Shown here: positions 22,044 through 56,855 of the stretch, piece after piece | Numbering within the stretch: the stretch's first letter is position 1 | Layout: each line of letters begins with the position of its first letter | Assembly: GCF_023558375.1 (NCBI RefSeq) | Contig: NZ_CP083761.1 | Span: 3,460,501-3,524,500 of the forward strand | Direction: 5' to 3' | Length of the DNA: 64,000 nt | Source: Chroococcidiopsis sp. CCMEE 29 | GTDB taxonomy: Bacteria; Cyanobacteriota; Cyanobacteriia; Cyanobacteriales; Chroococcidiopsidaceae | Made by a program: the position numbers and the translations under genes | Notes under the pieces: model-generated | The model's database searches: none | What the model was told of the DNA's origin: nothing | The model's input: the letters and a program-made list of their open reading frames with translations, nothing else

Positions 22044-23156
22044 TTAAGACCCCACTTGCATCTTCTGCAATTTCCGCCAAGCTAAGAAGAAAAAGAAGCT
22101 TGCCAGCAGTGCTAAAGCTAAGACTGGAAACCAAACCCCTAACCAACCTACACCGCGAGCATAAGCATCGCGAGTGATGAGAATGTAGTGCCGGGCTGGA
22201 ATCAGATCTGAAATCCAACGGATGCCGATTGGAATATTAGATACTGGGTAAATGAAGCCGGAAAGTTGCAGTGACAACAAGAATGCGGTGAATGCCACTG
22301 CCTGGATCGCAGCACTCTGGGTTCCGGTATTACTGCCCAGAAAGATGCCCCAAAATACACCGCAGGCAATGTAAAGCATTGAACCCAGAATCATGGGTGT
22401 GGGGTCGCCAGCAAACCACAGCCCGAAGAACAGCCATGCTTCCAGGTTAACTAACAACACCTCTGCCATACCCACCAGCCAGAATGCCGCCGCCTTACCC
22501 ACTAGGTACTCTGCGCCGGTAAGGCTAGATGCGTAAACTTGGAGAATAGTGCCTTGTTCCTTCTCTTTTGATGTTGCTAAGCCAGCCAGTAGCGCGGGAA
22601 ACAGCGTGACAGTAATTGCAACAGCCCCTGGACCAATGTATCTCAAGGTTTCTAAGCCAGGGTTGTACCACAGCCGAGACTGGAGACTTACGGGAGGAGC
22701 ATTACTACCCTGCCGATCTACAAAAGCATTGGTAGTCGCCTTAGCATAGCCCCTGACAATCGTGGCAGTGTTGGCATCAGTACCATCTATCAAAATTTGT
22801 ACTTCTACAGCGCGCCCCGATCGCTGCAAATCTCGCGTAAACTCTGGAGGGATAATCAACCCGGCTGAGACTCTGCCTTGATCTAGCAGTCGCGGCACAT
22901 TTACTGCTGGTCCTTGTGCCACTATGTTGAACTTGTTTGTCCGCTCAAACGTGGCAATATACTCGCGGCTCGCGGGTGTACGGTCTAGATCTTGGATAGC
23001 AAGGTTTATTTTGTTGACATCCAAGGACACAGCAAAGCCAAACAGCAGCAGCAGCAATAAGGGTAACGCCAGCGCCAGCGCCAAGGTCAGGCGATCGCGC
23101 CCGAGTTGCGTTAGTTCTTTGAGGGTTTGGGCAATGATGCGTTTGGGTCGTACCAT
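22044..23156 (-). CDS. ABC-2 type permease (YbhS-like)
   Basis: This 370-residue permease has the same design as its neighbour: an N-terminal helix (LALALALPLLLLLLFGFAV), an extracytoplasmic domain and five C-terminal helices with TSKEKEQGTILQVYASSLTGAEYLVGKA. Together with the other permease it should form the heterodimeric membrane part of the YbhFSR-type exporter. The gene starts 14 bp after the end of the twin-ATPase gene, so the two are very probably cotranscribed and perhaps translationally coupled. Confidence 0.88.
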   Translation of the reverse strand: MVRPKRIIAQTLKELTQLGRDRLTLALALALPLLLLLLFGFAVSLDVNKINLAIQDLDRTPASREYIATFERTNKFNIVAQGPAVNVPRLLDQGRVSAGLIIPPEFTRDLQRSGRAVEVQILIDGTDANTATIVRGYAKATTNAFVDRQGSNAPPVSLQSRLWYNPGLETLRYIGPGAVAITVTLFPALLAGLATSKEKEQGTILQVYASSLTGAEYLVGKAAAFWLVGMAEVLLVNLEAWLFFGLWFAGDPTPMILGSMLYIACGVFWGIFLGSNTGTQSAAIQAVAFTAFLLSLQLSGFIYPVSNIPIGIRWISDLIPARHYILITRDAYARGVGWLGVWFPVLALALLASFFFFLAWRKLQKMQVGS

Positions 23157-25274: not shown

Positions 25275-25320
25275 CCCCACTCTTCGAGAAGCCGCTTGCG
25301 CGTCTACGCCCCTCGCCCCT
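25275..25320. repeat. 46-bp dispersed repeat, copy at the hlyD 3' end
   Basis: Identical over 46 bp to 11186-11231 in lnt. It overlaps the last 17 bp of the HlyD-type gene and supplies its stop codon. The preceding 70 bp (25195-25265) are an A+T-rich repeat of ttttgagtt and aaaactta words. Confidence 0.88.
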
Positions 25321-26584
25321 CTACTGCCTCCGGTACAAGAATCCTTCCATCGGCGGGCATTCCGGGTTTTGCCAGACCCTGGGGATTTTTGAGGCTGAGT
25401 TCAACTCCAAACACTTGAGTCACCCGGTCTTTTTTGAAATAAATGTTTTCTGGCGTGAAGCTCGCTTTGGGATCTACCCGTGTAACAGTTGCTTCTAGCG
25501 GTTGATTCGGAAATGTATCTAGATAAACCCGCGCCTGCTGACCCAATTGGACTAGACCGATTTGCCCTGCCGGGATGAAGCCGCGCAAATAAAGCTGATC
25601 GAGGTTCACTATCGTCAGCAACGGTGCACCCGCTGCCACTACCTCGCCTGGTTCTACAGAACGGGTGATGACGTTACCAGCCATTGGGCTATTGATCGTC
25701 AAGTAGTTCAAATTTGCCTGAATCTCCGCCCTTGCTGCCTGAGCATCGCGAACTTCCTGCTGAGCCACCGAAACATCCGTGCGGGCTTGGGCAATCTGTT
25801 TTTGGATTTGTAACGCAGCAGCAGCGCGAATGGGTGGATTGCTTAGGGTCGCTTGGGCTTGAGTCAGCGTTCCCTCAGCGGACTGAACCTGCTGGCGGGC
25901 AGCAACAACACGGGCACTGGCAGCCTCAGCCTGGGCATCATCCTGATCTCGCTGTTGAGCTGACACAACCCCTTGGGCAAATAATTCTCTAGTCCTTCTT
26001 TGTTCGGCTTGAGCCAGCTTTAGATTAGCCTGGGCTTCAACTAGCTGGGCACGAGCTGCAGCTAGAGCATTCTTTGCTTCCAAAACTCGACCTCGACTCT
26101 CTTGAGCCGCTTGCTGTGTGGTTAAATTGGCTTGCTCTAGCTGGGCTTGTAGGATCGGTAACTGCTGACGAGCCCGCTCCAACCGTTCTTGGGCAGCACG
26201 GATTCGGGCTTCGCCGCCCTGGAGTTGGGCGCGCAGGTTCGCATCGTCGATCCGCACTAACAGCTGACCCGGCTTAACTAAATCTCCTTCTCTGACCGCT
26301 ACTTCAGCAATCTGTCCCCCAGTCTTAGCTGACACATCCGTTTCATAACCCTCAATTCGACCGCTTAAAAACAGCCCCTCCGGTTCCGGTTGATAAAAGA
26401 ACAGACGGTAAACGCCGTAGCCCACTCCAGCCAGAAGGGCGATCGCCGCCAAAAGCCGCACTGGTTTAGGAATCCCTCGCGGCTTCTTCGGAGGGGGCTG
26501 GGGTTCTGAGGGGTTGTCCTCAACGCGAACCGGACTGCTGGTAGCTTGTTTAGAGTTATGAGATTCTATCTGCGTTTCTGTCAT
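25304..26584 (-). CDS. HlyD-family membrane fusion protein (YbhG-like)
   Basis: This 426-residue periplasmic adaptor has an N-terminal cytoplasmic tail rich in Pro, one membrane helix (about residues 44-62), the lipoyl half-motif GGQIAEVAVREGDLVKPGQLLVRID, and a long alpha-helical hairpin full of Ala, Gln and Arg (about residues 120-285, with AARAQLVEAQANLKLAQAEQRR). The barrel and C-terminal part include SPMAGNVITRSVEPGEVVAAGAPLL. It links the inner-membrane exporter to an outer-membrane channel. The C-terminus is unusual: the last residues, including the stop, lie in a dispersed repeat that is also found in lnt, so the original 3' end was probably altered. The start is the ATG at 26584, after the operator-bearing gap. 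Confidence 0.9.
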   Translation of the reverse strand: MTETQIESHNSKQATSSPVRVEDNPSEPQPPPKKPRGIPKPVRLLAAIALLAGVGYGVYRLFFYQPEPEGLFLSGRIEGYETDVSAKTGGQIAEVAVREGDLVKPGQLLVRIDDANLRAQLQGGEARIRAAQERLERARQQLPILQAQLEQANLTTQQAAQESRGRVLEAKNALAAARAQLVEAQANLKLAQAEQRRTRELFAQGVVSAQQRDQDDAQAEAASARVVAARQQVQSAEGTLTQAQATLSNPPIRAAAALQIQKQIAQARTDVSVAQQEVRDAQAARAEIQANLNYLTINSPMAGNVITRSVEPGEVVAAGAPLLTIVNLDQLYLRGFIPAGQIGLVQLGQQARVYLDTFPNQPLEATVTRVDPKASFTPENIYFKKDRVTQVFGVELSLKNPQGLAKPGMPADGRILVPEAVEGRGA

Positions 26585-26700: not shown

Positions 26701-26720
26701 TTGATTGACTGATTAATCAA
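26701..26720. promoter_or_regulatory. Probable TetR operator before the exporter genes
   Basis: The 20 bp read ttgattga-ctga-ttaatcaa, an imperfect palindrome. The same halves in the same spacing, ttgattga-ttag-ttaatcaa, occur at 27401-27420 before the regulator gene. This copy lies between the tetR and hlyD-type genes, about 115 bp before the hlyD-type start. Repression by the neighbouring TetR protein is inferred. Confidence 0.6.
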
Positions 26721-26746
26721 TTTCAGTGCAAAAAAAAAGATTGTCT

Positions 26747-27388
26747 TCAAGCTTGGTCACTGCCATCTGATAGAGAGATCTGCATGCCTCGCAGAAAAAC
26801 CTCGACGGCAGTTTTTACCATCACCTCAGAGCTGAGTTGCTGTGTGTCAGGCTGTGGAAAAATTTCGCGCGTGATCAGATACGCAACTAGGGGACCAACG
26901 AAACAGCGTGCTGCTGCGCCTGGGTCCATCGGTTTCAATACCCCAGCTGCCATCTGCTGCTCCAGATAGCGAGTTAAAAAATTGAATGAACGACTCGGTC
27001 CAATAGTATTGAAGATCTCGGCAACTTGGGGTTGTCGGCAGGCTTCACCTAACACGAGCTTGAATAGCGCACTTGATGTTGAATTCTCCGCGACTTTGAG
27101 AAATGCATTACCAAAGAGGGTAAGTACATCTTGCGGTGCTTTAGTAACAATCTCCTCACTGTGGGTAAGCAGTTGCAGTAGTGGCAGCCGTTGCTCCATC
27201 ACCTGCCGAAACAAGTCGTTTTTATCTTTGAAGTAGTGGTAGATCAGACCAGGCGATCCAATTCCCGCCGCGGCGGCAATATCCTTATTAGTCGCTTTCT
27301 CAAAGCCCTTGCTGGCAAATACCTGCAACGCACCGTCAATAATTTGCTGTCGCCGACCCTCAAAGTCCTGCTCGTCGCGTAGAGGCAT
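26747..27388 (-). CDS. TetR-family repressor (CecR-like)
   Basis: This 213-residue regulator has an N-terminal TetR DNA-binding helix-turn-helix (about residues 10-56: RRQQIIDGALQVFASKGFEKATNKDIAAAAGI, then GLIYHYFKDKNDLF) and a C-terminal ligand-binding domain related to the CecR/YbiH type. It is the first gene of the exporter cluster, ahead of the HlyD-type gene, as in E. coli. Identical operator halves flank it (26701-26720 and 27401-27420), which implies autoregulation and control of the exporter. The inducer is unknown. Confidence 0.9.
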   Translation of the reverse strand: MPLRDEQDFEGRRQQIIDGALQVFASKGFEKATNKDIAAAAGIGSPGLIYHYFKDKNDLFRQVMEQRLPLLQLLTHSEEIVTKAPQDVLTLFGNAFLKVAENSTSSALFKLVLGEACRQPQVAEIFNTIGPSRSFNFLTRYLEQQMAAGVLKPMDPGAAARCFVGPLVAYLITREIFPQPDTQQLSSEVMVKTAVEVFLRGMQISLSDGSDQA

Positions 27389-27400
27389 AACGGCACTTCA

Positions 27401-27420
27401 TTGATTGATTAGTTAATCAA
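27401..27420. promoter_or_regulatory. Probable TetR operator before the regulator gene
   Basis: The 20 bp ttgattga-ttag-ttaatcaa lie 12 bp before the tetR start and match the site at 26701-26720 in 16 of 16 outer positions. A TATA-like box (tatatg on the minus strand) lies just beyond, so binding could block initiation. Confidence 0.6.
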
Positions 27421-27478
27421 ACATATAGCACAACCGATGGATTTTAGCAATAGCTTTGACTAAAGAGGGGAAAAGACT

Positions 27479-28723
27479 TCAACCCGCTCCTGCTAATACT
27501 GACTTGTTGGTCACCAATTCTAGTGCCGCTTGATATTGTTTATCTACTTCTGTCCCAATCTGTTCGCGGGTAATTGGTTCTAAGGAAACCAGAAGATCGG
27601 GCGTAATGCCTAGCTTGTGAATATCTCGATGCTTGGGTGTTTCGTACTTGGCAACAGTGACAGCCAATCCAGAACCATTCGACAAGTCAAATAAGGACTG
27701 AATTAAGCCTTTACCAAAGGTAGTTTCTCCTACCAGCTTTGCCCGACCGTTATCTTGCAGCGCCCCAGCCAGAATTTCACTGGCACTAGCAGTTCCTTGA
27801 TTCACCAAAACCACAAGTGGATCGTGAGTCAAGGCGGGTCCAAACGCATCAAAGCTACCCTGAATGCCTTGTCGATTCGCGGTATATACAATCGTGCCTG
27901 TATCTAACCACAAGCGGGCAATTTCGATTCCCGCTTGCAGTAAACCACCCGGATTGTTCCGCAAATCAAGAATATAGGCATCGGCTCCTTGTTTCTCCAG
28001 CTGGGCGATCGCATCGGCAAGTTCAGCTGGGGCGTAAGCGTTGAATTGAGTCAGGCGAATGTAGCCAATCGGTAGCCCGTCTGGGTCAGAATGTAATTCG
28101 GCAATTACCGGATTGAGAGCAATGCGATCGCGCTGTAGTTGAATTTCTTTACTATCCTCGCCCTCGTGTTCCACAATCAGGGAGACATGACTCCCAATCG
28201 GACCGCGCATTCGGGCAGCAGCTTCGTCCAGGGTAAGTTCGGCTGTGGAGATGCCATCGATTTTCAGGATGCGATCGCGCGGTCGAATCCCAGCTTTATC
28301 TGCCGGAGAACCAGCGATCGGAGCAACTACTTCCAGCGTCCCAGTCTTAGGATCGAGGGCAATTTGCAATCCCACTCCCGTCAGTTCCCCGGAAGTATTG
28401 ACCTGCAAACTGCGGTACTGCTCTGGTCTTAATAACCGGGTGAAAGGATCGTCAAGACCAGCAAGCATTTGCTGGATTGCCTTATATGCTGCCTCTTGGT
28501 CTTTGAGCGGCTGCTGGAGCACCTGTTGCCGGATCAATGACCAGTTCTGGTGATTAAACGTGTCATCCAGGTAAGTGCGATTTACAATTCGCCAAGCTTC
28601 CACTACCACCTTCTGTTCTTCGCTCAAAGCTGCTGCTGGTTGTATCCAACAGCTCAATGCAAGCAGCATGGGCAGTATCAGTAAAAATCCGACCCGGAAA
28701 ACTCGTTTTTGCAAGCAACTCAT
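27479..28723 (-). CDS. ctpA: Carboxyl-terminal processing protease
   Basis: This S41 serine protease has about 414 residues. It begins with a signal peptide (hydrophobic LLILPMLLALSCWIQPAAALS), then a helical region, a PDZ domain (about residues 95-185, with GELTGVGLQIALDP) and the catalytic core with GTASASEILAGALQDNGRA (Ser) and GETTFGKGLIQ (Lys). Cyanobacterial CtpA trims the C-terminal extension of the photosystem II D1 protein in the thylakoid lumen or periplasm. Several paralogues exist in most genomes, so this could be CtpA or CtpB. It lies back to back with petB, a common cyanobacterial arrangement. An alternative GTG start lies at 28735; the ATG at 28723 has gaaagg upstream. Confidence 0.85.
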   Translation of the reverse strand: MSCLQKRVFRVGFLLILPMLLALSCWIQPAAALSEEQKVVVEAWRIVNRTYLDDTFNHQNWSLIRQQVLQQPLKDQEAAYKAIQQMLAGLDDPFTRLLRPEQYRSLQVNTSGELTGVGLQIALDPKTGTLEVVAPIAGSPADKAGIRPRDRILKIDGISTAELTLDEAAARMRGPIGSHVSLIVEHEGEDSKEIQLQRDRIALNPVIAELHSDPDGLPIGYIRLTQFNAYAPAELADAIAQLEKQGADAYILDLRNNPGGLLQAGIEIARLWLDTGTIVYTANRQGIQGSFDAFGPALTHDPLVVLVNQGTASASEILAGALQDNGRAKLVGETTFGKGLIQSLFDLSNGSGLAVTVAKYETPKHRDIHKLGITPDLLVSLEPITREQIGTEVDKQYQAALELVTNKSVLAGAG

Positions 28724-28968
28724 CCTACCTTTCACCTTCAGCCCTAAGGCGCTTCCCTTTCAATTTATGAAATCACCCTCTCGATTATGTTACTTTTTTT
28801 ATAGAAGATGCAGAAAGACTCAGCTACTTTCGATTGCTGACCGGACTGCACCCGAATCACAACTGACTGGATTTCCAGCATTTGGCAAACCTTTGAAAAG
28901 CATCCCCTCCCTTCAAGTCGATTGGGAGTTTGAGCAACCGTAATCCATTTTTAGGAACTTCTGATTGT

Positions 28969-55957: not shown

Positions 55958-56855
55958 GAAGCCATTTGACATCTATCCATTTGATAGCCGTTTGAGCATC
56001 AGTCTGAGCAAACAAAGGTTGAGTTTAGCTGTGGCATTGACCAACGTTTTCTCAAAGTTTTTGACCAAACTCTTACATCGTTCCATCCAAGAATTAGACC
56101 GCTCAATCACCCATCGGGTTGCTACTCGAACAAATCCAGAGTGACCTTGGGCTGCCTTTTCGGCTTTCGTGGGCTTGGGTGCCAGTTCAAACCTGAGCTT
56201 GGTCATCATCTGAGGATAAAGTTTTTGTAGGGCAGCGGTGATGGTGTTTGGGTGATAGCCATGGTCGAGCAAAATGGTGATTTTGGGGACGTTGACGGGC
56301 TTGGCTCGAAAGTAATCCAGGTGATTGCTTAGCAGTTCAATCAAGCCTTGGTCATCGGACACATTAGCAGGAGTGCAGTGGGTAAAAAACGGCAACCCTA
56401 GAGGATCGACGGCGAGATGGCGTTTGATGCCATTAGTGCATTTGTAATGGCAGAACCCTTTGGACTCGATACTAGCACTACAGGTGTTTTTCACCGCTTG
56501 TGAGTCAACGATTAGTAACCGCGTCCATTTTTGTTTTTTTTGACATGTTGCCGCACCTGCGAATGCAATCTCGTCATTATCTGTTCGAGAACGCCATCCG
56601 CACGCCACTGCTTGTAATGCCAGAATACCGTCGAGTAGGGTGGCAAGTCTTTGGGCAGGTCACCCCAATTACAACCATTCTTAAGTTGATAAAAGACGCC
56701 ATCCAAGATTTGCCGCTTTGTCCAGCAAGGTGGCCTGGTTTTCTTCTTTTGGGGCACTAATGGCTCGATGAGCTCCCACTCTTTGTCAGTTAAGCTGCTG
56801 GAGTACGGCATTTATTTCTGATCTTAGCTTTTCATTAGAGATCTCAAATAGGTTC
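55958..56855 (-). mobile_element. IS5-family insertion sequence
   Basis: About 898 bp. Imperfect terminal inverted repeats run from gaagccatttgacatct at the left end to its partner gaacctatttgagatct at the right (complement). TATA flanks the element on both sides (55954-55957 and 56856-56859), consistent with a 4-bp target duplication. The right TATA is also the first four bases of a miniature element. The element codes for a transposase in two overlapping frames. Confidence 0.85.
55973..56811 (-). CDS. IS5-family transposase made by frameshift (orfA + orfB)
   Basis: Two frames join into one transposase. OrfA (56512-56811, 99 residues) has the N-terminal domain with LTDKEWELIEPLVPQ and GCNWGDLPKDLPPYSTVFWHYKQW. 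OrfB (55973-56608) contains the DDE core: LLIVDSQAVKN (first Asp), ILLDHGYHP (second Asp) and RWVIERSNSWMERCK (Glu). The frames overlap at an A-run (A AAA AAC in the orfA frame), at about 56525-56540, and a -1 shift there gives the fusion. This is a standard arrangement in the IS5/IS427 groups. The gene appears able to make an active enzyme. Confidence 0.88.

What the first reader, a model, noticed from the sequence alone, without database searches (positions are those of the whole stretch)
26701..27420. Matched operators on both sides of the TetR gene
The 20-bp sites ttgattga-N4-ttaatcaa occur at 26701-26720 and 27401-27420 only. All 16 outer bases agree and the spacing is identical. This predicts that the CecR-like regulator controls itself and the HlyD/ABC exporter from two promoters, giving a clear testable binding motif for a cyanobacterial drug-export locus.
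Basis: partly seen in the sequence, partly recalled or inferred. Interest (0 to 1): 0.55.

Follow-up and report, generated by a model that had tools for sequence, protein, structure and literature searches.

The report
Paired switches flanking a cyanobacterial repressor
Two matching DNA switches sit before a repressor gene and before the exporter genes it most likely controls; the same pair recurs around this repressor in other cyanobacteria, where it sometimes guards a different pump or an oxidizing enzyme, so this is an ordinary detoxification switch with an unusually clear, testable target sequence.

Summary
The two 20-bp sites are the only ones in the 6.39-Mb genome with 0 or 1 mismatch to TTGATTRA-N4-TYAATCAA. 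Comparison makes them very probably operators of the TetR protein encoded between them. Of 21 distinct orthologous regulators (window included), 20 have a site with at most 1 mismatch on both sides of the gene, while the flanks are poorly conserved. The 21st (G206) has a 2-mismatch site at tetR and its exporter on another contig, behind a perfect site. The regulator is AefR-like (PF14246), not CecR. A promoter-like signal lies directly before site 1, none before site 2, so 'two promoters' is unproven; a roadblock is about as likely. The less usual feature: the same regulator and operator pair precede three non-homologous outputs, a YbhGFSR-type exporter, a DevBCA-type exporter or a FAD monooxygenase. 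This fits a local detoxification switch with exchangeable output. Binding and ligand are untested. New member of a known kind.

The parts
27401..27420 (-). Operator O1, before tetR; gene orientation TTGATTAACTAATCAATCAA
   Evidence: perfect match, 12 bp before the tetR ATG; a site with at most 1 mismatch at this place in 20 of 21 orthologs (2 mismatches in the other)
26701..26720 (-). Operator O2, between tetR and hlyD; gene orientation TTGATTAATCAGTCAATCAA
   Evidence: perfect match, 26 bp after the tetR stop; a site with at most 1 mismatch after tetR in 20 of 21 orthologs (absent in the other, G206)
26747..27388 (-). tetR, AefR-like TetR-family repressor, 213 aa
   Evidence: PF00440 and PF14246; GSPGLIYHYFK invariant in 21 of 21 orthologs
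27422..27450 (-). Probable tetR promoter, TTGCTA-17-TATATG with TG before the -10, ending 1 bp before O1
   Evidence: Best placement (9 of 13 possible points); the set of 21 exceeds all of 200 shuffle means, but the generic scan does not flag this promoter
25304..26584 (-). hlyD-type membrane fusion protein, 426 aa, first gene behind O2
   Evidence: PF13437 and PF16576
23171..25150 (-). ABC ATPase with two nucleotide-binding domains, 659 aa
   Evidence: PF00005 twice; TIGR01188 drrA 437.3 bits, cut-off 312.45
22044..23156 (-). ABC-2 type permease 1, 370 aa
   Evidence: PF12698
20797..21960 (-). ABC-2 type permease 2, 387 aa (TTG start as listed)
   Evidence: PF12698 and PF01061

Best explanation
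The two sites are operators of the AefR-like TetR repressor encoded between them. Without ligand, one repressor dimer sits on O1, which begins just after the -10 of the tetR promoter and so covers the start of transcription, and another sits on O2 in the gap before hlyD, stopping either a promoter there or read-through from the tetR promoter. A small, probably toxic compound binds the repressor, both sites are released, and regulator and YbhGFSR-type exporter are made together. In relatives the same regulator and operator pair stand before a different output, so the switch is a local detoxification module with exchangeable output. Shown by sequence: sites, positions, rarity, conservation, co-occurrence with the regulator. 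Inferred: binding, repression, release by a ligand, nature of the ligand.
For: Only two sites with 0-1 mismatch in the genome, one on each side of tetR. A site with at most 1 mismatch on both sides in 20 of 21 distinct orthologs; identity 0.87 inside the sites against 0.27-0.46 in neighbouring 20-bp windows. G206: exporter on another contig than tetR, with a perfect site 34 bp before its HlyD start and a promoter-like TGATATAGT directly before that site. Perfect site in 11 of 12 genomes with the regulator and 13 of 279 without (Fisher p about 1e-12, too strong because genomes are related). Helix-turn-helix stretch GSPGLIYHYFK invariant in 21 of 21. 16 of 16 fetched monooxygenase loci without an adjacent regulator lack a site at up to 2 mismatches, 4 of 4 with it have two. 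Promoter-like hexamers just before O1 in the ortholog set.
Against: No binding, expression or ligand data. No promoter signal before O2 across 20 loci and none at either site in the window's generic scan. In the position scan the O1 promoter place is only the best of several close ones (z 2.49, next 2.23). G206 keeps only a 2-mismatch site before tetR and none after it. Perfect matches also occur in 13 of 279 genomes without the regulator.
Confidence: 0.85

Rival explanations
1. Roadblock variant (compatible with the main reading, it differs in the role of O2): there is one promoter, before tetR, and a dimer on O2 stops polymerase that has come through tetR, so the output is shut more tightly than the regulator.
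For: Promoter signal at O1 but not at O2; genes on the same strand with a short gap after tetR.
Against: The relocated exporter of G206 has a promoter-like TGATATAGT directly before its operator, and L018 and L019 have TATAGT at the start of O2, so a promoter at O2 exists at least in some.
Confidence: 0.45
2. Looping variant: dimers on O1 and O2, 700 bp apart, contact each other and close a DNA loop.
For: Two sites kept in 20 of 21 loci.
Against: Spacing varies from 680 to 885 bp with no convincing helical phase (R 0.31-0.35, p about 0.08-0.15).
Confidence: 0.07
3. The sites are bound by another regulator of the genome, not by the protein encoded between them.
For: The genome has eight other TetR-family matches to this protein; no binding test exists.
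Against: Across genomes the sites follow this regulator and not the downstream genes: three outputs share them and monooxygenase loci without the regulator lack them. Eighteen loci of regulators about 30% identical have none at up to 2 mismatches.
Confidence: 0.04
4. Chance, or plain shared descent of a recent DNA segment.
For: A/T-rich palindromes are not rare: the reversed control has 24 perfect matches in 15 of 291 genomes.
Against: Two perfect sites around one gene, repeated in 20 of 21 loci with diverged flanks.
Confidence: 0.01

Closest known systems
E. coli CecR (YbiH) with ybhGFSR
   Same: TetR-family gene first, then membrane fusion protein, ATPase with two nucleotide-binding domains and two permeases (order as given in passages of PMC7190983); CecR is listed as a single-target regulator of its own operon and rhlE (passages of PMC8249747).
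   Different: The regulator is not of the CecR group (18.9 bits, cut-off 365) and has a different C-terminal domain family. The CecR binding sequence was not seen in any paper here, so the motifs were not compared.
AefR-like TetR repressors (TetR_C_7, PF14246)
   Same: C-terminal domain above the curated cut-off; the AefR structure 3cdl is among the sequence matches (E 8.8e-9, residues 11-175).
   Different: Distant; operators and ligands cannot be transferred.
PmeR of Pseudomonas syringae
   Same: TetR-family repressor of its own gene and of an efflux operon, with palindromic sites, released by a small aromatic compound, phloretin (passages of PMC12421961).
   Different: Divergent genes, two overlapping sites in one gap and an RND pump, against two separate sites and genes on one strand here.

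Membership tests
TetR family, AefR-like (TetR_C_7) | N-terminal TetR helix-turn-helix domain PF00440 | tested here: met
   53.1 bits, cut-off 24
TetR family, AefR-like (TetR_C_7) | C-terminal domain PF14246 | tested here: met
   69.5 bits, cut-off 22
TetR family, AefR-like (TetR_C_7) | Binds a palindromic operator as a dimer and is released by a ligand | not testable with these tools
   Only the conserved palindromic sites are seen
CecR (YbiH) | Score above the curated cut-off of NF008587 | tested here: not met
   18.9 bits, cut-off 365
YbhGFSR-type exporter | Gene order fusion protein, double-domain ATPase, two ABC-2 permeases | tested here: met
   Window genes
YbhGFSR-type exporter | Fusion protein above the cut-off of NF002939 (HlyD/YbhG equivalog; that this model stands for YbhG is recalled) | tested here: not met
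   110.8 bits, cut-off 393: same type of exporter, not shown to be an ortholog
DrrA-type ATPases (TIGR01188) | Score above the curated cut-off | tested here: met
   437.3 bits, cut-off 312.45, two stretches
Single-target, self-regulating regulator | Sites only at its own locus | tested here: met
   Two sites with 0-1 mismatch in the genome; weaker sites were not excluded, and G206 shows a second locus

The most novel reading that the evidence does not exclude
One regulator with its two operators is an exchangeable control cassette in cyanobacteria: the genes behind O2 have been replaced at least twice (YbhGFSR-type exporter, DevBCA-type exporter, FAD monooxygenase) while operators and DNA-binding stretch stayed nearly unchanged. 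The three outputs would act on one class of compound, perhaps a flat aromatic or polyketide-like one, and the cassette could be used to find it.
Probability: 0.5. Interest if true: 0.55.

Novelty: new member of a known kind. Interest (0 to 1): 0.4.

Why it matters
It gives a precise, nearly unique 20-bp target for a cyanobacterial repressor whose ligand is unknown. Because the same switch stands before pumps in some genomes and before an oxidizing enzyme in others, a reporter built on this operator could identify the compound sensed and tie two exporters and an uncharacterized monooxygenase to it.

Tried and rejected
CecR membership was tested and rejected. A promoter at O2 was tested over 20 loci and not supported; in a position scan the best places at O2 lie at offset 11 inside the site and at 22-24 behind it. 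The latter recur at O1 and come from TTGATT in the operator resembling a -35 (my reading). Looping by helical phase is inconclusive. Sites with 2 mismatches in the genome were not followed one by one, being near control level. In other genomes with the regulator, (up to 1 mismatch, list cut) shows single extra sites, most with an unfitting centre by eye; no shared further target was established. Among the 14 perfect sites in genomes without the regulator, by eye only the one in G229 fits the refined centre. Fourteen loci of such extra perfect sites, 13 of them from genomes without the regulator, gave no tblastn hit to the regulator, the exporters or the monooxygenase (about 1.5 kb on each side). 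The second site of G245 was not fetched. Plasmids: 322 records match, all below 60% identity, the ten listed at 35-37%. Regulator tree against output: 10 of 20 inner branches are open; three outputs need at least two changes; the best tree needs 5 changes over five labels (outgroup and the G206 case counted as labels, least possible 4), so number and direction of replacements are unsettled. Papers, listings only: TTGATTGA with TetR (20 of 250 listed, none relevant by title), TTGATTAA with TetR family and cyanobacteria (no paper); no listed title is about this system. The library lacks most subscription papers, so this is no proof of absence; the 2016 CecR paper was not seen. No structure was predicted.

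Full report
OBSERVATION. In gene orientation (minus strand) they read TTGATTAACTAATCAATCAA (O1, 27420-27401) and TTGATTAATCAGTCAATCAA (O2, 26720-26701). O1 lies 12 bp before the tetR ATG; O2 lies 26 bp after the tetR stop and 116 bp before the HlyD ATG. The genome of 6,389,772 bases holds these two at 0 mismatches and none at 1; at up to 2 mismatches there are 30 against 21 for the reversed control.

WHAT IT IS. The gene between the sites encodes a TetR-family protein with an AefR-like C-terminal domain. Behind O2 follow an HlyD-type fusion protein, an ATPase with two nucleotide-binding domains and two ABC-2 permeases, all on the minus strand. The order equals that given for E. coli ybiH-ybhGFSR in passages of PMC7190983. 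The regulator is not of the CecR group (18.9 bits, cut-off 365).

RELATIVES. The scan of genome contigs gave 60 loci, of which nine are close relatives (68-78% identity in the best segment) and 51 distant (52% or less). The order search found the regulator in 12 of 291 genomes at E 1e-30 or better (own genome included). The class search found 22 of 388 at 1e-20, of which four are close (own included) and 18 are 28-32% identical. I dropped three copies of the same loci (L078, L079, L083), leaving 21 distinct regulators with the window. In 20 of 21 a site with at most 1 mismatch lies before and another behind tetR; 15 of 21 first and 15 of 21 second sites are perfect. Mean pairwise identity is 0.87 in each site; the 20-bp windows around give 0.27-0.34 at O1 and 0.28-0.34 at O2, except 0.46 just before O2. 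Over 42 sites (21 first, 20 second, the G206 exporter site) the consensus in gene orientation is TTGATT-R-A-Y-Y-A-R-TCAATCAA, with position 7 A in 28 and G in 14. GSPGLIYHYFK in the helix-turn-helix region is invariant in all 21 proteins; that it holds the recognition helix is recalled knowledge of the family.

REGULATOR AND SITE GO TOGETHER. In the 291 genomes of the order a perfect site occurs in 11 of 12 with the regulator and in 13 of 279 without (Fisher p about 1e-12, too strong because genomes are related). The twelfth, G205, has two 1-mismatch sites. The reversed pattern has 24 perfect matches in 15 of the 291 genomes, so single perfect matches in genomes without the regulator are background. 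In the family the same 4 of 19 genomes have regulator and perfect site. Eighteen of 18 loci of regulators about 30% identical have no site at up to 2 mismatches.

THE SEPARATED CASE. In G206 the regulator is on contig C233 with a 2-mismatch site before it and none behind it. Its exporter is on contig C247, well inside the contig, with a perfect site 34 bp before the HlyD start and TGATATAGT directly before that site. The centre of this site (TTCA or TGAA) departs from Y-Y-A-R. It is the best argument that the site governs the exporter and not only tetR.

THREE OUTPUTS. Behind tetR and O2 stand a YbhGFSR-type exporter in 11 of 21 (window included), a DevBCA-type exporter in 3 of 21 (L016, L017, L132), a FAD monooxygenase in 6 of 21 (L125-L129, L131), and no recognized output in G206. 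Of the 11, eight show all four exporter genes (in L136 the second permease matches in two pieces), two contigs end inside the ATPase (L012, L130), and in L013 ATPase and permeases are reduced to pieces. Family models for the L132 proteins: DevB 346.8 bits (cut-off 129), DevC 588.2 (290.35), DevA 380.6 (295.8); L016 and L017 were assigned by matching gene starts and sizes. The monooxygenase matches PF01494 in two of six tested and NCBIfam PRK06185.1-3 in one tested (539.7, cut-off 500); all six are recovered at the regulator by the search.

OUTPUT GENES WITHOUT THE REGULATOR. The monooxygenase occurs in 49 of 291 genomes at E 1e-110, only 8 of them with the regulator, and in two of these 8 (G091, G178) it is not at the regulator. 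Of 20 fetched loci (20 of 51 matches) the four beside the regulator have both sites, the 16 others none at up to 2 mismatches. The enzyme therefore also lives without this switch, which weakens the idea that it is dedicated to the regulator's ligand. The HlyD ortholog was found at E 1e-110 in 3 of 291 genomes, all three with the regulator (six candidates per genome were scored, so misses are possible).

MECHANISM. With the -10 placed from 1 bp inside to 4 bp before the site, the best promoter hexamers before O1 average 8.48 against 6.86 (sd 0.24, maximum 7.38 of 200 shuffle means), with TG before the -10 in 13 of 21. A dimer on O1 would cover the start of transcription. The signal is modest: a generic scan of the window does not list this promoter, and in the position scan it leads narrowly (z 2.49, next 2.23). 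Before O2 the score is 7.05 against 6.71 (sd 0.25): no signal. The 20 bp before O2 are nevertheless partly conserved, with a T run of 5 or more in the 35 bp before the site in 17 of 20 loci, including loci of each output; its role is open. So the regulator most likely represses itself at O1, and the output at O2 either at a weak promoter or as a roadblock. Spacing of 680-885 bp gives no convincing helical phase.

LIGAND. Unknown. That pumps and a flavin monooxygenase take the same place suggests removal of a harmful organic compound. E. coli YbhFSR was reported to export tetracyclines (abstract passage of PMC7190983), the ATPase passes the cut-off of the daunorubicin-exporter model, and below-cut-off or distant relatives of the monooxygenase include rifampin, aklavinone and polyketide oxygenases, but also many others. 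This is only a lead.

VERDICT. A real, conserved operator pair of a local TetR repressor: ordinary in kind, useful for its clarity, with one less usual feature, the exchange of outputs under an unchanged switch.

Noticed in passing
window 26721-26755 (minus strand) and the same place in orthologs: A run of T shortly before O2, 5 or more in 17 of 20 loci and 9 in the window, in loci of all three outputs; role unknown.
   Followed up: partly
window 55973-56811, minus strand: Two overlapping frames that look like a split transposase gene (my reading, no family search). A 20-mer inside it (56325-56344) occurs five times in the genome.
   Followed up: no
L013 10168-10943: Iningainema tapete: the ATPase gene breaks off and runs into the end of the second permease, so the exporter looks deleted, yet both operators are perfect.
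   Followed up: no
L125, L128, L129, L131, upstream of tetR: In four of six monooxygenase loci a divergent ATPase gene (27-29% identical to the window's ATPase) starts 180-320 bp before tetR; whether O1 also affects it is open.
   Followed up: no
window 27479-28735, minus strand: A carboxyl-terminal processing protease gene (NF045588) ends 58 bp before O1 on the same strand, so read-through into tetR is possible; tblastn with this protease gave no listed hit (over 70 bits) in the 21 related stretches searched.
   Followed up: partly
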